NCBI RefSeq assembly: GCF_000829465.1 | Contig: NZ_JXAL01000026.1 | Coordinates: 124,001-188,000, forward strand | Length of the DNA stretch: 64,000 nt | From: Cohnella kolymensis | Lineage (GTDB): Bacteria; Bacillota; Bacilli; Paenibacillales; Paenibacillaceae | Direction of reading: 5' to 3' | In this document: positions 55,108 to 64,000 of the stretch, one piece after another | Position numbering within the stretch: the stretch's first letter is position 1 | Layout: every line of letters begins with the position of its first letter | The notes under the pieces: generated by a model | Databases searched by the model: none | Told to the model about the DNA's origin: nothing | What the model saw: the letters and a program-made list of their open reading frames with translations, nothing else | Made by a program: the position numbers and the translations under genes

Positions 55108-56070
55108 TCAAAGCCATTCGGCAATAAAAGTCATCGCCGTGTCGGCGAAACCGGGCAGCCCCTCGTGACCGTAGTCGGGATAAACCTCTACCCTTTTCGG
55201 AGAAATAATCTTGTTGTAAGCGGCAAATTGCGTGGATGGAGGCGTGATCGTGTCCATCAGTCCCGTTGCCATCATGACCTCACCTTTAATACGAGGCGCC
55301 AAATGCTGAACATCAATATAACCCAGCTTTTCGAAAATTTCGGCTTCTCTCGTGTGAAGGGGATCGAACTTGCGGAAATAGGCTCGTATTTCATCATAAG
55401 CATCTTTCGCCAGATCCATCTCCCACACCCTCTTATAGTCCGAGAGAAAAGGATATACCGGAACCAGCTTTGCAATCCTGGGCTCGAGCGCCGCGCAAGC
55501 CAGCGTCAACCCGCCGCCTTGCGAATAACCCATAGCAGCGACTCGGCTCGGGTCGACTTCATGCAAATCCATTACGATGCCGGCCAATTGCGCTGCGTCC
55601 AGATAGATTTGGCGATACAGCAGGTTGTCCGGGTGATCGTCTAGCCCGCGTATGATATGCCCGTTTAATGTATTACCCTTCACTCCGCCTGCATCCTCGG
55701 ATGAACCGCCCTGTCCCCGGACGTCCATGGATATGAAGCTTATGCCGAGCGCGGCGTAAGCGACTTTCTCCATCCAGTCCCCCGAATTCATGGAGTACCC
55801 GTGAAATTGAATGACGGCGGGATGAGGAGCTGAATTGCCTTTGGGACGTATGTATTTCGCATGAATCCGGGCGCCGCGCACGCCTGTGAAGAAAAGCTCA
55901 AAGCAGTCGGCGATCGGCACCTGGAACCGGGCCGGTATCAGTTCCACTTGGGCATCGACGCTCTTCATTTCGGTCAAGGCCCGCTCCCAGTAATCATCGA
56001 AGTCTGCCGGCCTTGGGCTGATCCCTTGATAGGTTCGAAGTTGCTCAAGCGGAAAATCGATTAACGGCAT
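55108..56070 (-). CDS. Acetyl xylan esterase / cephalosporin-C deacetylase (CE7)
   Basis: Alpha/beta hydrolase of CE7, 320 residues. The nucleophile is in GYSQGGGLTLA, the aspartate in GLMDTITPP, and the histidine in YGHEGLPG; RGQGGSS is the CE7 marker. It removes acetyl groups from small acetylated sugars or antibiotics, in the cytoplasm (no signal peptide). It stands out as an insertion in the B. subtilis-like order. ATG 56070 has GGGAAG upstream. Confidence 0.9.
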   Translation of the reverse strand: MPLIDFPLEQLRTYQGISPRPADFDDYWERALTEMKSVDAQVELIPARFQVPIADCFELFFTGVRGARIHAKYIRPKGNSAPHPAVIQFHGYSMNSGDWMEKVAYAALGISFISMDVRGQGGSSEDAGGVKGNTLNGHIIRGLDDHPDNLLYRQIYLDAAQLAGIVMDLHEVDPSRVAAMGYSQGGGLTLACAALEPRIAKLVPVYPFLSDYKRVWEMDLAKDAYDEIRAYFRKFDPLHTREAEIFEKLGYIDVQHLAPRIKGEVMMATGLMDTITPPSTQFAAYNKIISPKRVEVYPDYGHEGLPGFADTAMTFIAEWL

Positions 56071-56142
56071 ATGAATGCTTCTTCCCTTCATGTCCTTTTT
56101 ACTCTAATATACAATCCATCCTACTCTATATTTTCTCACAAT

Positions 56143-56181
56143 AAAAGCGCCTCCCTCCTTTAGAAAAGGAAAAAGGCGCCT
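56143..56181 (-). terminator. Terminator after the small IDEAL gene
   Basis: On the minus strand AAGGCGCCTTTTTCC pairs imperfectly with GGAGGGAGGCGCTT around a loop of about 10 bases, ending in TTTTATTG. It falls between the IDEAL gene and the esterase. Confidence 0.7.
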
Positions 56182-56211
56182 TGTTCGTGCCGATTCAAAG
56201 CGCGAACCGGC

Positions 56212-56394
56212 TTAGGATTGAATGGTCTTTAATTCATCGGTCAAACGCCGAAAGGATTCGACGTCTCCTTGTGCGAGCGCATCATCAATAGCGTCGTATA
56301 TTTTCTCCGTCCGGTAATTGCGCAGCGCTTCGTCAAGGACCATTTCTGCCGCCAGCCCCAGCATGGTCTCATAGGCGACTTTCATGTTGTCCAT
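56212..56394 (-). CDS. Small IDEAL-domain protein
   Basis: A 60-residue protein with an IDEAL-like stretch (KIYDAIDDALAQGDVESFRRLTDEL). In Bacillus this motif is the C-terminal end of YpiB; here it stands alone. GGAGGTG lies upstream of ATG 56394. Function is unknown; protein binding is the family guess. Confidence 0.75.
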   Translation of the reverse strand: MDNMKVAYETMLGLAAEMVLDEALRNYRTEKIYDAIDDALAQGDVESFRRLTDELKTIQS

Positions 56395-56433
56395 TCGTTG
56401 CACCTCCAAAATCCGGCGTTGCGGGCTCCTCGA

Positions 56434-56940
56434 TCAGGGGTTCCCGTATTGCTCGCCTTTGCTCACGTAACTGTCCGCCGTTGTTTTCATCCGCTGCAGA
56501 TCTTTCTCGGTCAGCTCCCTGATCACCTTCGCAGGGGTTCCCAAGCATAAAGTATAAGGCGGAATGACCTGGTTCTCCGTAACGATCGCGCCGGCTCCCA
56601 CTAAAGCATATTCACCGATGTCAGCCCCGTTCAAGACGATAGCCCCCATGCCGATCAATGTACCTCTGCCTATCCGGCATCCGTGGATGATTGCAGCGTG
56701 TCCGACTGACACTCCATCCTCCAGAACAAGAGGTTGATTCGTATTCACATGGCCTACGACCCCATCCTGTATATTACACTGTCTTCCGATCTCGATCGGC
56801 GCCAAGTCCCCGCGCAATACCGCATTAAACCAAACGGTGCTCTGCTCGCCGATCGTGACGTTCCCGATAATTTTGGCTCCTTCCGCAACATAGACTCCCG
56901 ACGCCAATCGCGGGTAAATTCCCATAAAAGGCAGTTGCAT
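56434..56940 (-). CDS. Gamma-class carbonic anhydrase-like hexapeptide protein
   Basis: A 168-residue left-handed beta-helix (I/V-G-x-x-x-x hexapeptides: NVTIGEQSTVWFNAVLRGD). Possible zinc histidines are in VVGHVNT and SVGHAAIIHGC. May have carbonic anhydrase activity or act as a transferase. ATG 56940 is preceded by AAGGAGAG; a hairpin covers part of it. Confidence 0.88.
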   Translation of the reverse strand: MQLPFMGIYPRLASGVYVAEGAKIIGNVTIGEQSTVWFNAVLRGDLAPIEIGRQCNIQDGVVGHVNTNQPLVLEDGVSVGHAAIIHGCRIGRGTLIGMGAIVLNGADIGEYALVGAGAIVTENQVIPPYTLCLGTPAKVIRELTEKDLQRMKTTADSYVSKGEQYGNP

Positions 56941-56942
56941 AT

Positions 56943-56987
56943 ACAATCTCTCCTTTTTTCCCCGTAACGTGAATTTTCAGAGATTGT
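56943..56987 (-). promoter_or_regulatory. Hairpin that would cover a ribosome-binding site
   Basis: ACAATCTCT and AGAGATTGT pair perfectly over nine bases. The second arm is part of AAGGAGAGATTGT, the ribosome-binding site of the carbonic-anhydrase-like gene, so folding would hide it. The loop is 27 bases. A candidate translational switch. Confidence 0.5.
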
Positions 56988-57018
56988 AGCAACATACCTG
57001 CCGGCTGTCAAACGGCGG

Positions 57019-58251
57019 TCAGTCTATGACCAGCTTATCTTCAAAAGCCAGCGTATTGCCGGAAATCAAAGATTTGCCTTGCGGTGTTATGCGGATAACG
57101 TTTGCCCCTTCTGCAGTTTCTCCCCACCGCACCATCCCTAAGTGCAGCATCATGGTCAATACGCGGCGCTCCAGGATGTCCTGCTGCGTATCATAATAAT
57201 AGGGACGAACGAGAGGCTGCAAAATAGAGGTTAAGGATTCGACGGTCAACCAGTTAGAAGACAGCCGCATTACCCATTGAATCAGCGCGGATAGATTGGG
57301 GATCGCTCCCTTATACACCCGCAGCCAGAACCGGTACAAGCCGGTGGGATCCATTCGTTCCGTTCCATCCGCTATGCCGAGACCCTGCTCGGTAAGCACC
57401 AGCCTGTCCGGCTGTTCCGCTATCAGCTTGTGATAGTATGCAAAATCGTAGATGAGCGAAAACCTGTCGGGATAATCGCGGAATCTGCGGCCATAGCCGA
57501 ATCTCCAGCCGCCCCGGGCCGGAATGTTCTCGTGGACGGCGAACAGCTCCAGAATCTGTCCGACTTGCCTTTTGTACATCACCCCTTCTGCAGTAAGCGG
57601 AATGTCGTTGGCCCGGACATAGCGCATGAATTGGACGAAATCGTCCAAAATCAAGCTTCTTTCGTCCCGATACACGGGAGGTTCCTCCGTATACACCAGC
57701 GAGGCGCGATATTTATGTTCCAAAGCATCGCAAAGCCTCGTTTTGATGTCTTCCGGAACCTGGTATAAATAGCGGGTCTGCTGAGAAAAGCCGTTGAACA
57801 ACCAGCCGAAACGCTTGAACCGGCTGATGGCATGGCGGGCAATTTCATCCGGGCCCATGGGTGGAACTTCCTGCGTTTTTTTCGCTTTGCGGGTGCGGCC
57901 GCCTTTCGGCGGGCTTTTGGCTAATGGAGGCGGCTCCGGCGGCTTGAATTCAACGCCCGCCGCAAGGACTTGCTGCCGGAGAACGGCTGGGTCGCTTCCG
58001 AGCGCTCTGGCTTTCAATTCTTCGAGACTATAAGCCGCCCGGGATTCGAACAATAACGAATTCAAAAAACGCAAATCGCTCGCCGTTATCTCATCAACCC
58101 GCGTTTCGAGCACATCCCGCCGCTGCACCGTCGACAGAATGGATTGGATCAACTCATTTTTCGAGTGGCTGCTGCAGCTGCAATCATAGGTTTCTGCGAT
58201 TCTGGTTAACTCGGCAATATCCGCGTAACAGAGCATGTCGGCCAAGTTCAT
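57019..58251 (-). CDS. Unknown protein, possible winged-helix/helicase-associated
   Basis: A 410-residue cytoplasmic protein with several predicted winged helices. The basic linker PPKGGRTRKAKKTQE divides a helical N-terminal part (a SAP-like first 40 residues, CSSHSKNELIQSIL) from a longer C-terminal domain. Resembles the N-terminal module of XPB/Ssl2 helicases, but no ATPase motif is present. Function unknown. Confidence 0.65.
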   Translation of the reverse strand: MNLADMLCYADIAELTRIAETYDCSCSSHSKNELIQSILSTVQRRDVLETRVDEITASDLRFLNSLLFESRAAYSLEELKARALGSDPAVLRQQVLAAGVEFKPPEPPPLAKSPPKGGRTRKAKKTQEVPPMGPDEIARHAISRFKRFGWLFNGFSQQTRYLYQVPEDIKTRLCDALEHKYRASLVYTEEPPVYRDERSLILDDFVQFMRYVRANDIPLTAEGVMYKRQVGQILELFAVHENIPARGGWRFGYGRRFRDYPDRFSLIYDFAYYHKLIAEQPDRLVLTEQGLGIADGTERMDPTGLYRFWLRVYKGAIPNLSALIQWVMRLSSNWLTVESLTSILQPLVRPYYYDTQQDILERRVLTMMLHLGMVRWGETAEGANVIRITPQGKSLISGNTLAFEDKLVID

Positions 58252-58328
58252 ATGTCATTCCCCGCTTTATGGAGGATTTACTCTCCATTATCGGCGCGGT
58301 AAAGAGGTTTTAAACTTCATATAAACGC

Positions 58329-58354
58329 AAAAAAATCTGGCGTGGCCGCCAGAG
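58329..58354 (-). terminator. Terminator after the histidine phosphatase gene
   Basis: On the minus strand TCTGGCG pairs with CGCCAGA over a four-base loop, followed by TTTTTTT. It lies about 12 bases beyond the stop. Confidence 0.88.
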
Positions 58355-58365
58355 TTCGTTGTCGA

Positions 58366-58968
58366 CTATGAGTTTGCTTTAATATCGTTTAAGTGGATGG
58401 TGCAGTTGTGCAGCAATGATTGCCATCCTTGCTCCTGTCTCTGAAGGATACTGAGAGACATGTTCAGGAGATAACTGTCGTCCAGCTCCTTGCACATAAC
58501 CTTGAGCAGTCTGGCTAAAAAGCTGCCATGGGTCACGACAAGCCACGCCTCTCCGGCATGCTCCAGGGTCAGCTCCTCCACAAATTTCATGCCCCGATCG
58601 ACAATCGAGAGATCCGTTTCCTGATCGGGCACCCGATTTCTCCAGTCGGCGCCCCAACGGGCCAGCCGCTCTTGTTCAGTCGTTCCCTCGGCTTGCCCGA
58701 AGTAACGTTCGCGCAGGCGGGAATCCTCTATAAGGGGAATTCCCATGCTGTCGGCTAATATTTGCGCGGTCTGCACCGCGCGAGTCAGATCGCTGCACAT
58801 GATTCCGTCCCATGACTCACCGTCGCGAACGAGACGATCTGCCAGCAAACGGGCCTGATTGATCCCCTCGCTGCTGAGCGGGATATCGGTAACGCCCTGT
58901 ATTTTGCCCAATCGGTTCCATTCTGTAACGCCATGGCGAATCCAGCCGATTCGGGTCGGTTTCATCAT
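58366..58968 (-). CDS. Histidine phosphatase family protein
   Basis: A 200-residue phosphoglycerate-mutase-like phosphatase with the catalytic RHGVTEWN and the second histidine in VVTHGSFLARLL. ATG at 58968 overlaps the anti-sigma stop by ATGA. Substrate unknown; members handle alpha-ribazole phosphate, phosphoglycerate and others. Confidence 0.9.
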   Translation of the reverse strand: MMKPTRIGWIRHGVTEWNRLGKIQGVTDIPLSSEGINQARLLADRLVRDGESWDGIMCSDLTRAVQTAQILADSMGIPLIEDSRLRERYFGQAEGTTEQERLARWGADWRNRVPDQETDLSIVDRGMKFVEELTLEHAGEAWLVVTHGSFLARLLKVMCKELDDSYLLNMSLSILQRQEQGWQSLLHNCTIHLNDIKANS

Positions 58969-59567
58969 GCACGTACACGAGAGAACCAATTCAGTATGAG
59001 CAGCGTCATAATGATTCCCAGCATCGAGAAGGCGATCCAATATTCCGGCATTGACGGTGTCACATGAAGCATAATGGGGTCGCTCAAGCTTGCAACGGGG
59101 ACGTCGACATGCACGCTGCTGCTTAACTGCTGACTCGCGGCGAATGCATTCGCCGTTTCCATAATACCCGTGTCCTTGGCGGTCAAGCCATGAGCCCGGC
59201 TGAACGATGTATACAAAAATCCGCAGACGAACAAGGCCAGAAGCGCAGCAAGCAATCCGGCCACCTTGCGCCTGAAGGCGTAAGAAAACGTGTACGTACG
59301 GCGAACGGTCGGCATGTACCAGCTTTGTTCCGAGTAGATCCGGTTCATGACGCTTTCATTCAGCCCACTGACATTCACCGGATTCTCGCTCCATGTGTCG
59401 TCCGTAGGCCATTCATGAAGCAATAGGGCGCTCTCTTCCCAAATACGGAATTCCGCCTCGCATGCGCTGCAGCTGTGTACATGCAAATCAACGGCTAAAC
59501 GTTCGGGGGAATCCTCCGGCAAGTCCCTGTATATTCCGAACCATTCCGCTGCCTCTTCGCATTTCAT
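58965..59567 (-). CDS. Zinc-type anti-sigma factor, membrane
   Basis: A 200-residue protein with the ZAS motif H-X3-C-X2-C (HVHSCSACEAEF) in its cytosolic N terminus and two helices (VAGLLAALLALFVCGFLY and WIAFSMLGIIMTLLILNW). It overlaps the upstream ECF sigma gene by four bases. It probably holds the sigma factor inactive until a signal arrives. Confidence 0.88.
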   Translation of the reverse strand: MKCEEAAEWFGIYRDLPEDSPERLAVDLHVHSCSACEAEFRIWEESALLLHEWPTDDTWSENPVNVSGLNESVMNRIYSEQSWYMPTVRRTYTFSYAFRRKVAGLLAALLALFVCGFLYTSFSRAHGLTAKDTGIMETANAFAASQQLSSSVHVDVPVASLSDPIMLHVTPSMPEYWIAFSMLGIIMTLLILNWFSRVRA

Positions 59568-60163
59568 CGCAGTTTCATCTCCTCGTACTCCTTCGTCATC
59601 GCCGGTTCGTTCATGTATGATTCCAATTGCGTCTTGACACTGGCCCTGGCGCGGAATAGCAGCGATTTAACGGAGCTGACCGTCTGACCCAGTATGTTGG
59701 CGATTTCCTGGTAATCCATACCGTCATATTCCCTTAAAATAAGTGCGGACCGCTGTTTTTCAGGAAGGCTGTTGATCGCTTCCCGTACCATGGATACTTT
59801 CTCGCTGCGCAGCAAGCGCTGCTCGGGCGCCGCTTCCGGCGGAGCGGCGGGTATGTATGTGGAGTCGTCCAGCGACAGATGGGCCGACTTCTGCTTCCGA
59901 AGCTCGCTTAGAACCGTATTCCGGGCAATCGTATACAGCCAAGTGGAGAAGGATGCGTCCACTTCCCGAAAGGAATGTAAGCTTCTGTAGGCTTTATAAA
60001 ACGTCTCCGAGCATATGTCCTCGGCAAGTAATTCCAGTTTTGCGCTTTTGAGCATGTGGTATACGAAAGACAGAATTTTCTTCTGATATCGTCCCATTAA
60101 CGTTGAATACAGCTCTACGTTCCCGTCTTTGATCTCGCGAATTAATTGGGAATCGGTCATCAT
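59564..60163 (-). CDS. ECF sigma factor (intact)
   Basis: A 199-residue ECF sigma factor: region 2 in LAEDICSETFYKAYRSLHSFREVDASFSTWLYTIARN, region 4 in SLPEKQRSALILREYDGMDYQEIANILGQTVSSVKSLLFRARASVK. The ATG at 60163 has GGAGGG eight bases upstream. It shares an operon with the anti-sigma and phosphatase. I do not know its target promoters. Confidence 0.94.
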   Translation of the reverse strand: MMTDSQLIREIKDGNVELYSTLMGRYQKKILSFVYHMLKSAKLELLAEDICSETFYKAYRSLHSFREVDASFSTWLYTIARNTVLSELRKQKSAHLSLDDSTYIPAAPPEAAPEQRLLRSEKVSMVREAINSLPEKQRSALILREYDGMDYQEIANILGQTVSSVKSLLFRARASVKTQLESYMNEPAMTKEYEEMKLR

Positions 60164-60400
60164 GTCCGCGACCCTCCCCTCTTCAGGGTAAACGTTCGCA
60201 GCCGGATGTAATATATATTGTACCGGCCAAAAACGAAAAAGTTGCGCCGGGGGGCGCATTTCTACCTGAGAAACCAGTTTTTTACAAATCACAACAGTTA
60301 TTGTATCACAGGTGCAGTGGGTATGAACTTAAAAATTTCTCAAATTATTGAAGGGAAATGTGTCCTATTTTATGGTTATTACCCAATTGGCATAACAAGC
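60164..60400. other. Intergenic stretch upstream of the ECF operon
   Basis: On the minus strand a GCGCC-CCC-GGCGC hairpin with T-rich tail (about 60230-60260) could be a weak terminator. GATACAAT near 60300 is a possible -10. No ORF with coding character is present. Confidence 0.4.
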
Positions 60401-60473
60401 AAAAAAAAACCACCCCGGAGGGTGGCTGCACATAGTGCGAGTATTGGATAGGAGTGGAGAGAAACCATACTGT
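60401..60473 (-). ncRNA. Candidate small RNA, about 73 nt
   Basis: From a perfect sigma-A promoter the transcript would start near 60473 and end in the terminator CCACCC-TCCG-GGGTGG with nine U residues (60401-60425). In between are a C/U-rich stretch (TCTCTCCACTCCTATCC) whose CTCCT core is complementary to a Shine-Dalgarno sequence, and a GCAC-TAT-GTGC mini-hairpin. No ORF fits in it. The unpaired C/U-rich 5' part, the short stem and the U-tail are typical of trans-acting Bacillales regulatory RNAs. Upstream cre boxes suggest CcpA control. Confidence 0.65.
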
Positions 60474-60479
60474 ACTTTT

Positions 60480-60541
60480 ATTATATGAATACGTTTACAT
60501 TTTGTCAATAAGCGTTTTCATTTTATTTTAAGCGGTTACAT
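60480..60541 (-). promoter_or_regulatory. Consensus sigma-A promoter with three cre-like boxes
   Basis: On the minus strand TTGACA (60503-60508), 17 bases and TATAAT (60480-60485). Three cre-like boxes are present: ATGTAAACGTATTCAT (60485-60500, between -35 and -10, a full match to WTGNNARCGNWWWCAW), a half-match ATGAAAACGCTTATT (60507-60521, at the -35) and ATGTAACCGCTTAAAA (60526-60541, two mismatches). Their CG centres are 20 to 21 bases apart. The arrangement predicts tight repression by CcpA. Confidence 0.75.
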
Positions 60542-60564
60542 TAGAGTTCCGGGTTTTATCGCAC

Positions 60565-60593
60565 AAAAAAACGGCCGTCTTCAGGGACGGCCG
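60565..60593 (-). terminator. Terminator after tyrA
   Basis: On the minus strand CGGCCGTCC pairs with GACGGCCG over a short loop, followed by TTTTTTTG. It lies about 10 bases beyond the tyrA stop and isolates the sRNA promoter from the trp-his-tyr operon. Confidence 0.92.
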
Positions 60594-60601
60594 ATGCGTG
60601 A

Positions 60602-61750
60602 TCAAAAATGAACCGAATACTCCATTGATTTCAGCAGCGCAACCGCTTTGTCCAGATCTTCATTCTGACGGAAAGATAACCGCAGCACGCCCGGCACATC
60701 TTCCCGGCTTTCGATAATCTGCAAATTGCTCAGGTTAATCCGGGCTTGCCCGAGCTCGGTAGCGATTTTGCCGATGATCCCGGGGTGATCGGGCACGTCA
60801 ACGTAGCATTCGTATAATGATGTGATCATACCTTTTCTGCGTTCCGGGAGCTGACTGCGGAATTGTCCCGCTCGCCGGAATTGCTCCTCCAGCCCGTCCC
60901 CGTCCGACTGTTGGAGCAATGCAGAGAAACCGTCTATCTCCGCTTGCCAGTCGCGAAGCAGCTTTAACAGAACGCCGCGGTTGCTCAGCAAGATATCCCG
61001 CCAGATGAGCGGATCGCTGGACGCGATACGGGTGATGTCCCGGAAGCCTCCGGCCGCAAGACTTCCGTAAAGCTCGTTCGACTCGTTATAGCCGGCAATC
61101 TGATTGACAAGCGCGACGGCGATGATATGCGGCATGTGGCTGATCGCCCCGACGATGTCGTCGTGCTGCACCGCATCGGTCTTGACGATATGTGCTTTCG
61201 TATATTTCAACAGTTCCTGCAGCCGGTCAACAGCTTGCGGCGGCGTTTGTTCAGTTGGTGTGAGCACGTAAAAGGCGTTTTCAAACAAATGGGAGCTCGC
61301 CGCTTCAACACCCGAACGTTCGGAGCCGGCCATCGGATGACCTCCGATGAATACTGCGCCTTGCTCCGCAAGTATGGATGCATGACGGACAACAGAGGCT
61401 TTCGTACTGCCGACATCCGTAACGATACAACCCGGCTTCAGCGGGATGCGGGCCAGCTCCTCCAAATAATCTTCCAAGCGGCCCACCGGAACGCAAAGAA
61501 AAAGAAAATCGGCGTCCGACGCCGCTTCGGCAATAGAGGTCGTAGCGTGATCCACAACGCCTCTGTCCGCATATTTCTGCGCAGAAGCCGGGTTAATGGA
61601 GTGGCCGGTCACTTGCACGCCAGGTTTCCCTTTGAAGCATAAAGCCAAGGAACCGCCGATCAGTCCGACACCGAAGATCGTGATTTTGACGGATTTCCCC
61701 TGCCCCTGGCCGTTTGATCTTTCCGCTGATGTGTTAAACTCTGAGCTCAT
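60602..61750 (-). CDS. tyrA: Prephenate dehydrogenase with ACT domain
   Basis: Tyrosine branch enzyme, 382 residues. The NAD fold has ITIFGVGLIGGSLAL; GGHPMAGSERSGVEAA and VGAISHMPHIIAVALVNQ form the active site. A C-terminal ACT domain (VDVPDHPGIIGKIATELGQARINL) is the likely tyrosine sensor. Follows hisC by 4 bases, as in B. subtilis. Confidence 0.96.
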   Translation of the reverse strand: MSSEFNTSAERSNGQGQGKSVKITIFGVGLIGGSLALCFKGKPGVQVTGHSINPASAQKYADRGVVDHATTSIAEAASDADFLFLCVPVGRLEDYLEELARIPLKPGCIVTDVGSTKASVVRHASILAEQGAVFIGGHPMAGSERSGVEAASSHLFENAFYVLTPTEQTPPQAVDRLQELLKYTKAHIVKTDAVQHDDIVGAISHMPHIIAVALVNQIAGYNESNELYGSLAAGGFRDITRIASSDPLIWRDILLSNRGVLLKLLRDWQAEIDGFSALLQQSDGDGLEEQFRRAGQFRSQLPERRKGMITSLYECYVDVPDHPGIIGKIATELGQARINLSNLQIIESREDVPGVLRLSFRQNEDLDKAVALLKSMEYSVHF

Positions 61751-61754
61751 GCTG

Positions 61755-62852
61755 TCACACCTTTATCGCGATTTCCTGCAGAACCGCTTTCAGCGCGGCG
61801 ACTACCTTCTCGTTCTGCTCCCTGCTTCCGACCGTGATCCGGATATGAGCGGGGTATCCCTTATGGCCTGCTCTCACGATAATGCCGCGGCGAAGCAAAG
61901 CATCAAACACTTCCAGCGCCGGCCGCCGCACATCGACCATAATGAAGTTGCCATACGCCGGGAACGCTTGAAGACCCATTTGCCGGAACTCCCCGTCCAA
62001 ATATTGCAGACCTTCCTTATTGGCACGGCGGCATTCCGTCAGGAAGCTTTCATCGTTGATGGCAGCCAAGGCCGCAGCTTGCGCAAATCTCGATGTGTTA
62101 AAAGGCTCACGCACTTGATTGATGCTTCGGATGACGTCGGGACGGCCGATTCCGTATCCGATCCTGAGCGATGCCAAACCGTATATTTTAGAAAACGTGC
62201 GAAGAAGTACGACATTCGGGTACTTGCGAAGCAACTTTAGACCGTCCGGATAGGAGGGATCTTCAACATACTCGCAGTAGGCCTCATCCAATACGACCAG
62301 CACATTCTGAGGTACTGAGGACAGGAAGCTTTCGAGCTCATCTTCCGTGACTATGGTGCCGGTCGGGTTATTGGGGTTGCACACCCAAATGACCTTTGTT
62401 TTATCCGTGACACGATCAAGCATCGCAGCCAGGTCGTGGGTACCCTCTTTGAGAGGAACTTCGATACTGACGGCATTCTCTATTTGTGCGTTATGTTTAT
62501 ACTGAGGGAACGTCTGATCGGCCATAATCGTCTCGTCGCCGGGCACAAGAAAAGCCCTTGCGATCATGAGGATGACTTCATCGGAACCGGCTCCGAAAAT
62601 GATCTGATCCGGATTTACCCCATGCTGCTTCGCTAATGCGGCGGTCAGTTCAACGGCCGCCCCATCGGGGTAGATGCTCATGTTCTCGAGCTCGCGAGTA
62701 ATAGCTTCCTTGGCCTTCGGCGAGCATCCGAACGGATTTTCGTTCGAAGCCAGCTTGATCACCTCAGTCAAGCCCAGCTCGCGCTTTACATCTTCCACAG
62801 GCTTTCCTGGCTGGTACACCGGCAAGTCCACAATATTCGGTTTAGGTTGCAT
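61755..62852 (-). CDS. hisC: Histidinol-phosphate aminotransferase
   Basis: PLP enzyme, 365 residues, for histidine and often aromatic amino acid synthesis. The lysine is in RTFSKIYGLASLRIGYG; NPNNPTGTIV and DEAYCEYVEDP are present. ATG 62852 has GGAGGG upstream; a longer frame has none. Confidence 0.95.
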   Translation of the reverse strand: MQPKPNIVDLPVYQPGKPVEDVKRELGLTEVIKLASNENPFGCSPKAKEAITRELENMSIYPDGAAVELTAALAKQHGVNPDQIIFGAGSDEVILMIARAFLVPGDETIMADQTFPQYKHNAQIENAVSIEVPLKEGTHDLAAMLDRVTDKTKVIWVCNPNNPTGTIVTEDELESFLSSVPQNVLVVLDEAYCEYVEDPSYPDGLKLLRKYPNVVLLRTFSKIYGLASLRIGYGIGRPDVIRSINQVREPFNTSRFAQAAALAAINDESFLTECRRANKEGLQYLDGEFRQMGLQAFPAYGNFIMVDVRRPALEVFDALLRRGIIVRAGHKGYPAHIRITVGSREQNEKVVAALKAVLQEIAIKV

Positions 62853-62947
62853 AGCTTTCCCTCCTGAAAATATGGCAAACGGAGCGTCTGCCGCTCCGTA
62901 TTCATTGTACGTTCTATTTTGACATATCGCTTTAACGCTGTACAGCA

Positions 62948-63785
62948 CTATTTCCTTGGCTTCAGCCCGGCGATGAAATGTTCGACCGTGTCATAGCCCT
63001 GCTTACGGACTTCCTCGTCGTTCGAGATCAGCTCAGGAAGCACCTCTTCGACTTTTCGGACGATGGCGCTGCCGACAATCACGCCGTCGCATTGCCCGGC
63101 AAATCGCTCCGCATGTTCGCGCGAAGAAATGCCGAAGCCGACGCAGATCGGTACGGATGATGCTTGGCGAACCGTGCTTAAAAAAAGTCTCGATGCCTTC
63201 GTGAAAAGCGGAGCGGACCCCCGTAACTCCCAGCGAAGAGACGCAATAGACGAAGCCTCTGGCATTTGCCGCAATTTTCTCTACCCGCGCTTGAGAGGTC
63301 GGAGCTACGAGCGGAATGAGATGAACACCGCACTCTTCAGCGATGGCCCTTGCTTCCGCATCTTCTTCCAGAGGAAGATCGGGGATAATAACCCCGCTGA
63401 ACCCATGCTCCTTGAGCAGGCCGAAAAATTTAGGCAAACCGAGCTGCAAGGCGGGGTTGTAATAGGTAAACAGAATGAACGGCATCGTTACTCCGCGGCG
63501 TCTTGCTTCGGAGGCGACACCCATGCAGTCCTGCATGGTGATCCTGTTCTTCAAAGCCCTTTCGGAAGCTCTCTGAATGACGGGACCGTCTGCGAGGGGA
63601 TCGGAATACGGCACGCCAAGCTCGATCATATGCGCTCCCGCCCGCTGAGCCGCCTCAACGAGTGCGACGGATGTGTCGAGATCGGGATCTCCCATCGTCA
63701 TGAACGGGATGAGCGCCGTTTCTCCCCGCTCCTTCAACTCGGCGAACACCGTGTCGATCGCGTTAGGCGCTGTCGTCGTACTCAT
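62948..63785 (-). CDS. trpA: Tryptophan synthase alpha chain, one-base frameshift
   Basis: Cleaves indoleglycerol phosphate. 278 residues after repair. The N-terminal part has [26 protein letters not shown]. The frame shifts in a run of seven T on the minus strand (63180-63186), and the rest ([32 protein letters not shown]) follows in another frame. The homopolymer suggests a sequencing error. It overlaps trpB by four bases. Confidence 0.95.
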
Positions 63786-64000
63786 GGCTGCACTCCCTCT
63801 TCATAGGACATGATCGATTCCACATCTTTGTCTCCGCGGCCGGACAGGTTCACAATCATTATTTCGTCTTTAGCCATCGCAGGCGCAATCTTGACTGCTT
63901 GAGCTATGGCATGCGCGGATTCCAATGCCGGAATGATTCCTTCCGTACGCGAGAGCATTTTTAACGCATCCAATGCCTCAGCATCCGTAATAGGGACGTA
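63782..64000 (-). CDS. trpB: Tryptophan synthase beta chain (C-terminal part, cut by window edge)
   Basis: The last 72 residues of TrpB ([39 protein letters not shown]) lie in the window; the rest lies beyond. It makes tryptophan from indole and serine with PLP. Its stop overlaps the trpA start. Confidence 0.96.

What the first reader, a model, noticed from the sequence alone, without database searches (positions are those of the whole stretch)
60401..60541. Candidate catabolite-controlled small RNA
In the 440-base gap between tyrA and the ECF sigma gene, a perfect TTGACA-N17-TATAAT promoter reads into a 73-nt segment that ends in a strong GC hairpin with nine U residues. Three cre-like boxes flank and overlap the promoter with CG centres 20 to 21 bases apart. 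The one between -35 and -10 is a full match to the extended CcpA consensus, a position that blocks polymerase. The RNA carries a C/U-rich stretch with CTCCT, which would pair with Shine-Dalgarno sequences. Together this predicts an RNA that is shut off in glucose and, when made, represses translation of metabolic mRNAs. No gene on either strand explains these signals.
Basis: partly seen in the sequence, partly recalled or inferred. Interest (0 to 1): 0.8.

Follow-up and report, generated by a model that had tools for sequence, protein, structure and literature searches.

The report
Ancient CcpA-controlled small RNA of Bacilli
Between two ordinary genes lies a short RNA gene that looks as if it is switched off when sugar is plentiful, and whose exposed front end has stayed almost letter-for-letter the same across much of the bacterial class Bacilli, although it matches no family in the RNA catalogue searched.

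Summary
On the minus strand, TTGACA-N17-TATAAT precedes a 73-nt segment (60473-60401) ending in a GC hairpin and nine U, with cre boxes around the promoter. Conservation shows that it is a real RNA unit: 117 of 119 genomes of the order, own included, have it. In 114 of 117 fetched loci 26 nt (AGTATGGTTTCTCTCCACTCCTATCC) are identical. The 3' hairpins vary but covary (12 of 15 pairs). All 114 distinct promoters examined keep a cre between -35 and -10. In 14 of 117 loci the unit is flipped against the sigma gene, so it is no leader or 3' UTR.

It reaches beyond the order: 195 of 398 class genomes match (6 of 22 weak ones inspected were chance). No Rfam 15 match was found in the loci scanned. Its distribution is nearly complementary to RsaE/RoxS (overlap 6 genomes; 4 inspected, all chance).

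Best reading: a trans-acting RNA, repressed by CcpA in sugar, pairing through an invariant pyrimidine seed with purine-rich ribosome-binding sites. Expression, CcpA binding and targets are inferred. My target searches found nothing convincing.

The parts
60503..60508 (-). -35 box TTGACA
   Evidence: 12-of-12 promoter match; TTGAC in all 117 aligned loci, last A 92%
60480..60485 (-). -10 box TATAAT
   Evidence: columns 85-100% conserved in 117 loci
60486..60500 (-). cre (CcpA box) ATGTAAACGTATTCA between -35 and -10
   Evidence: cre with at most 1 mismatch at this place in 114 of 114 distinct Paenibacillales promoters
60507..60521 (-). second cre-like box ATGAAAACGCTTATT, overlapping -35
   Evidence: second upstream cre (at most 1 mismatch) in 90 of 114, 21-22 or 29-32 bp from the first, one at 44
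60527..60541 (-). third, outermost cre-like box ATGTAACCGCTTAAA
   Evidence: sequence; those of its columns that were aligned (60536-60527) are mostly poorly conserved
60401..60473 (-). small RNA, 73 nt from the predicted start to the end of the U run
   Evidence: alignment of 117 loci, folding, covariance; no transcript data
60446..60471 (-). invariant 5' block AGTATGGTTTCTCTCCACTCCTATCC
   Evidence: identical in 114 of 117 order loci
60449..60464 (-). class-wide core TTTCTCTCCACTCCTA, proposed seed
   Evidence: 37 of 40 fetched class loci L148-L187, one of them from the own family
60428..60438 (-). hairpin 1 (GCAC/GTGC)
   Evidence: 4 of 4 pairs with changes on both sides
60401..60427 (-). 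terminator hairpin and U run
   Evidence: 8 of 8 pairs with changes on both sides

Best explanation
This is a free-standing, trans-acting small RNA of an old family of the class Bacilli. SHOWN BY COMPARISON: it has its own promoter and terminator, it moves and flips independently of its neighbours, its 5' block is invariant and predicted mostly single-stranded, its two 3' hairpins are kept by compensatory changes, and in the order its promoter always carries a cre in the -35/-10 spacer, usually with a second cre two or three helical turns upstream. INFERRED: with glucose, CcpA with HPr-Ser-P sits on the promoter and excludes polymerase; without it the RNA is made. The invariant pyrimidine block (UUUCUCUCCACUCCUA) then pairs over short stretches with purine-rich Shine-Dalgarno regions of several mRNAs and lowers their translation, as C-rich RNAs such as RoxS and FsrA do in B. 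subtilis. Outside the order the same RNA is often without a recognisable cre, and some lineages have a CodY-like box instead, so the input may differ while the RNA stays the same.
For: 117 of 119 genomes of the order with E of 1.2e-7 or better. 26 nt identical in 114 of 117 loci. Covariation: 98 distinct sequences, 97.7% of cells paired, 12 of 15 pairs change on both sides, score 0.347 against 0.098 shuffled, 0 of 500. Seed mostly unpaired in single folds: nt 10-16 0.89-0.97 and nt 20-26 0.91-0.97 of 117, but nt 17-19 only 0.32-0.34. Spacer cre in 114 of 114; second cre in 90 of 114 against 21 of 2280 shuffled stretches; spacing 21-22 or 29-32 bp in 89 of 90. Sigma gene on the opposite strand in 14 of 117 loci. 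195 of 398 class genomes, 39 of 40 fetched loci with TTTCTCTCCACTCC. hisC, tyrA or aroA within the fetched stretch in 58 of 68 and 107 of 117 further loci, overlapping sets. Own genome has hfq and a ccpA-like gene.
Against: No transcript, footprint or mutant data. No target: the 870 gene starts show best -28.8 and 324 below -15 kcal/mol, against -27.7 +/- 2.1 and 304 +/- 50 for shuffled RNAs; complement sites in the own genome are about as common as control. 16 fixed letters with fixed spacing are more than pairing with many different ribosome-binding sites would seem to need. Outside the order only 10 of 61 distinct promoters among L120-L187 have a cre with at most 1 mismatch. In the own genome the ccpA match is split over two frames and below the family cut-off. 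The plain MAFFT alignment of 46 sequences gave almost no consensus structure; the covariance count uses an alignment fitted to a model built from 14 chosen sequences.
Confidence: 0.6

Rival explanations
1. The unit is a small RNA, but the invariant block is a binding site for a protein (an RNA-binding protein, or a DNA-binding protein just downstream of the start), not an antisense seed.
For: 16 fixed letters over the class while flanks vary. No near-complete complement elsewhere in the own genome: besides the gene itself the best sites have 3 of 17 mismatches, or 1 of 16 with G-U allowed. No pairing excess at gene starts. In L155, L165 and L200 the reverse complement of 9-12 nt of the core lies in the promoter spacer, in L222 9 nt just upstream of -35.
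Against: The block contains ACUCCU and CUCUCC, which fit Shine-Dalgarno sequences, and is predicted mostly open. No candidate protein is known to me. A DNA operator alone would not explain the covarying hairpins.
Confidence: 0.25
2. It is a 5' leader or attenuator of the ECF sigma gene, or the processed 3' end of the tyrA mRNA.
For: In the window and in 95 of 117 loci the sigma gene follows on the same strand.
Against: In 14 of 117 loci the sigma gene, and in 11 of these tyrA too, is on the strand opposite to the RNA; in others the neighbours are displaced or not found. tyrA has its own terminator at 60593-60572.
Confidence: 0.03
3. It is mainly a sponge that titrates other RNAs, like RosA or RsaI, which are also CcpA-controlled.
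For: CcpA-controlled sponges exist in the same class (PMC8216469, passages).
Against: Those sponges use G-rich regions to catch C-rich RNAs; this RNA has the opposite character. No long complement exists in the own genome.
Confidence: 0.07
4. It is a tiny, nearly leaderless mRNA (ATGGTTTCTCTCCACTCCTATCC...).
For: An ATG lies 6 nt from the predicted start.
Against: No silent changes inside the frame in the block; after it sequence and length vary and only pairing is kept. L312 and its relatives have CTGATT...TAG in this frame, and L079 has an inserted base.
Confidence: 0.03

Closest known systems
RoxS / RsaE (Rfam RF01820)
   Same: Small trans-acting RNA of Bacilli with conserved pyrimidine stretches; both contain UUUCUC; RoxS acts on central metabolism with C-rich regions (PMC8216469, passages).
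   Different: No covariance match in the own genome; different promoter signals; none of 8 RsaE loci lies by hisC, tyrA or aroA; nearly no genome has both.
RosA of B. subtilis
   Same: Stand-alone small RNA repressed by CcpA (PMC8216469, passages).
   Different: About 229 nt, G-rich sponge; this one is about 73 nt and C/U-rich.
RsaI (RsaOG) of Staphylococcus
   Same: CcpA-controlled small RNA (PMC8216469, passages).
   Different: Has G-rich regions and is kept in Staphylococcus but not in Bacilli, according to that paper; no Rfam match of the window stretch.
FsrA of B. subtilis
   Same: C-rich regions pair with mRNA targets.
   Different: Iron-responsive (recalled); no comparison of sequence made beyond the Rfam scans.

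Membership tests
RsaE/RoxS (RF01820) | match to the family's covariance model | tested here: not met
   no match in G000; no RF01820 row for window 56000-64000 up to E 5
RsaE/RoxS (RF01820) | same genomic locus | tested here: not met
   0 of 8 RsaE loci have hisC, tyrA or aroA within about 1.5 kb
Any Rfam 15 family | score at or above gathering | tested here: not met
   window 56000-64000 (best E 0.42, none on the unit); 0 matches in 20 class loci; L160 segment: 23 rows, all below gathering
CcpA-repressed genes | cre overlapping the promoter, conserved | tested here: met
   114 of 114 distinct promoters of the order, 3 loci without the exact core left out
CcpA-repressed genes | CcpA binding and glucose repression | not testable with these tools
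   needs footprinting or Northern blot
Trans-acting C-rich small RNAs of Bacilli | own promoter and terminator, independent of neighbours | tested here: met
Trans-acting C-rich small RNAs of Bacilli | accessible conserved pyrimidine seed | tested here: met
   nt 17-19 of the seed are usually predicted paired in a weak 3-bp stem
Trans-acting C-rich small RNAs of Bacilli | base-pairing with mRNA targets | tested here: inconclusive
   no excess and no conserved target
RosA/RsaI sponges | G-rich regions that bind C-rich RNAs | tested here: not met
   sequence of the unit against the description

The most novel reading that the evidence does not exclude
This RNA is the ancestral post-transcriptional arm of carbon catabolite control in Bacilli, older and more widespread than RsaE/RoxS, which took over its role in the Bacillus-Staphylococcus lineages; its core has been frozen because one short sequence serves a large conserved set of partners (or one conserved protein), while the transcription factor that reads nutrient status was exchanged (CcpA in some lineages, CodY in others).
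Probability: 0.3. Interest if true: 0.88.

Novelty: new member of a known kind. Interest (0 to 1): 0.72.

Why it matters
[quoted passage not shown] subtilis and S. aureus share. A second RNA with a frozen core in about half of the sampled class genomes, on present evidence absent where RsaE occurs, would give Paenibacillus, Brevibacillus, Alkalihalobacillus relatives and others a common riboregulator tied to sugar status. It can be tested at once in harmless soil strains, and the fixed 16-nt core poses a clear question: what partner forbids any change for so long?

Tried and rejected
Leader, attenuator or 3' UTR of neighbours: rejected by flipped and displaced loci. Short ORF: rejected. Rfam families: none at gathering. 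BsrF or BsrC, which I recalled as CodY-linked candidates (note): no such match.

Targets. (1) Complement of 17 nt in the own genome, up to 3 mismatches: 10 sites including the gene itself, control 7; two sites lie at ribosome-binding sites. (2) The same with G-U allowed: 5 sites including itself, control 5; one lies at a ribosome-binding site, one inside a frame that I recall as PTS enzyme I. (3) Duplex energies at 870 gene starts from 864 kb of the own genome: no excess over 60 shuffled RNAs. (4) GGATAGGAGTG upstream of ATG: 47 of 119 genomes, 69 sites by my count against 14 for the reversed pattern, which AGGAG as a Shine-Dalgarno would give anyway; 30 of the sites inspected, no gene recurring except one shared by two sister genomes. 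(5) Neighbour genes: sigma (108 loci) -15.2 against -15.4 shuffled, tyrA (38) -11.4 against -12.7, anti-sigma (104) -15.4 against -13.6 with 59% better: at most a weak hint. (6) The best pairing at a ribosome-binding site found in (1) and (2), upstream of a small protein: 48 of 119 genomes have the protein, but of 30 loci looked at only the own shows the strong pairing (-26.4; others -2.5 to -22.8).

RNAalifold on a plain MAFFT alignment of 46 gave -1.4 kcal/mol, because hairpins of different length were misaligned; two of the 46 had been cut short by my script. Papers: searches found no description of this RNA; PMC5670726 reports 27 small RNAs in Paenibacillus riograndensis, but its tables were not seen (passages).

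Full report
WHAT IS THERE. The unit lies on the minus strand between tyrA (60602-61750; prephenate dehydrogenase) and an ECF sigma gene (from about 60163 down to 59564). A 12-of-12 sigma-A-type promoter (60508-60480) precedes a 73-nt segment that ends in a strong hairpin with nine U. The segment folds at -21.4 kcal/mol, z -3.06. Three cre-like boxes lie 20 and 21 bp apart, one of them between -35 and -10. The window genome belongs to the genus that the tool calls g1; three g1 contigs have the same lengths as named Cohnella contigs (15724, 895296 and 1840377 bases), so I take it to be a Cohnella.

CONSERVATION IN THE ORDER. A DNA search with 60390-60560 found matches in 118 of 119 genomes at E 1 or better. 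One of these (G095, 1.4 Mb, E 0.388) is chance level, and G101 (81% complete) has none, so 117 of 119 count, the own genome included. I fetched all 117 loci. RNA nt 3-28 are identical in 114 of 117; the three exceptions are L079 (one inserted base), L114 and L117. Columns upstream of -35 and downstream of the U run are at background.

STRUCTURE. In single folds of 117 sequences nt 10-16 and 20-26 are unpaired in 0.89-0.97 and nt 17-19 in about a third, from a weak 3-bp stem with nt 7-9; some of these folds ran past the terminator. A model from 14 sequences of similar length found the RNA in 100 of 100 loci given, of 117 held. On that alignment, which leans towards the model, 98 distinct rows give 97.7% paired cells, 12 of 15 pairs with changes on both sides, covariation score 0.347 against 0.098 shuffled (0 of 500) and at most 0.088 when the partners are slid. 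The three pairs of the weak stem never vary and say nothing.

INDEPENDENCE. Sigma was found on the same strand in 95 of 117 loci and on the opposite strand in 14; tyrA likewise 96 and 11. The flipped loci exclude a leader or a 3' UTR. Duplex energies gave no sign that the RNA prefers the sigma gene's ribosome-binding site.

CONTROL BY CcpA. Among 114 distinct promoters of the order (the three loci without the exact 16-nt core left out) 110 have a full match to WTGNAANCGNWNNCW within 75 nt upstream of the core (shuffled: 0.00) and 114 have at most 1 mismatch. All 114 have it in the spacer; 90 have a second one upstream, against 21 of 2280 shuffled stretches. The distance between the two is 21-22 (54 cases) or 29-32 (35), once 44: two or three helical turns. 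Cases are related by descent; for the 7 distinct distances alone the phase test gives p about 0.04. A cre inside the spacer usually means repression by CcpA (general knowledge). Outside the order the picture is patchy: of 64 distinct promoters of L120-L187, 13 have a cre with at most 1 mismatch, and 3 of those are from the own family (L141, L145, L187), leaving 10 of 61. Brevibacillus-type loci have AAGCGCTTACA across the -35/spacer, scored 2 mismatches. Ten of the 15 sites in the weak-hit set have at most 1 mismatch, among them loci with TTGACAGCGCTTCCA. A CodY-like box (at most 3 mismatches to AATTTTCWGAAAATT) is found in 10 of 64 and 9 of 85 against 0.02-0.03 in shuffles.

BEYOND THE ORDER. 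The model matches 195 of 398 genomes of the class at E 0.01 or better. Of 22 weak ones re-examined, 15 best hits hold TTTCTCTCCACTCC, one (L310) has a changed version, and 6 (L311, L322-L326) are chance, so 195 is somewhat too high. Of 40 further loci fetched (one from the own family), 39 hold TTTCTCTCCACTCC and 37 the 16-nt core. At phylum level 7 of 398 genomes match at 1e-4, all in the own family. hisC, tyrA or aroA lies within the fetched stretch in 58 of 68 (L120-L187), 107 of 117 (L188-L304) and 15 of 18 loci; these sets overlap in genomes (Pfam check of 20 neighbours). The place is thus probably ancestral.

RELATION TO RsaE/RoxS. RF01820 matches 117 of the 398 class genomes, 82 over its cut-off. 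Six genomes appear in both lists; the four inspected (G196, G210, G402, G420) have only chance hits to the model; G406 and G491 were not inspected. The Fisher value ignores descent and is not a proof: a split between two large clades would give the same table. The RNAs differ in sequence apart from UUUCUC, in promoter and in place. I read them as analogues; replacement is a hypothesis.

TARGETS. None was identified. Details and controls are in Tried and rejected; the strongest pairings are no better than for shuffled RNAs. This leaves room for a protein partner of the core.

KNOWN OR NEW. No Rfam 15 family reached its gathering score in the stretches scanned. Text searches, including the core letters, found no description; the library holds open-licence papers only, and the supplementary tables of the one Paenibacillus transcriptome (PMC5670726, passages) were not seen. 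CcpA-controlled small RNAs as such are known: RosA and RsaI (PMC8216469, passages). So this is a new family of a known kind, remarkable for its age and its frozen core.

Noticed in passing
L123, L124, L126, L154, L155, L158, L165, L169, L170, L172 (terminator loops): Outside the order many copies carry a second cre-like sequence inside the terminator hairpin (such as TGAATGCGCTTACA, TTGTAAGCGTTTACG), within the transcribed part. It could be a roadblock site.
   Followed up: no
L155, L165, L200 (promoter spacer), L222 (upstream of -35): 9-12 nt of the reverse complement of the RNA core lie in or next to the promoter (GGAGTGGAGAG and the like); L173 has GGGGTGG opposite a changed core CCACCCC.
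   Followed up: partly
L120-L122, L127, L163, L185 (about 25-35 nt upstream of -35): A conserved AATCAGAAAATT-like motif, resembling half of a CodY box, where cre is missing.
   Followed up: partly
class sample of 398 genomes: RsaE/RoxS and this RNA almost never occur together: 117 and 195 genomes, overlap 6, of which 4 inspected are chance.
   Followed up: partly
L161 and L180; L306 and L327; L190 and L270; L124 and L181: Two copies of the RNA in one genome, with different 5' ends but the same core.
   Followed up: no
own genome contig C14, 131487-132472: The best ccpA match is split over two adjacent frames (424.9 and 46.1 bits; cut-off 442): a frameshift in the gene or an error of the draft.
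   Followed up: no
62948-63785, minus strand: A gene that looks like trpA (recalled; no family search made) appears in two overlapping frames, 63033-63785 and 62948-63274: again a frameshift or a draft error.
   Followed up: no
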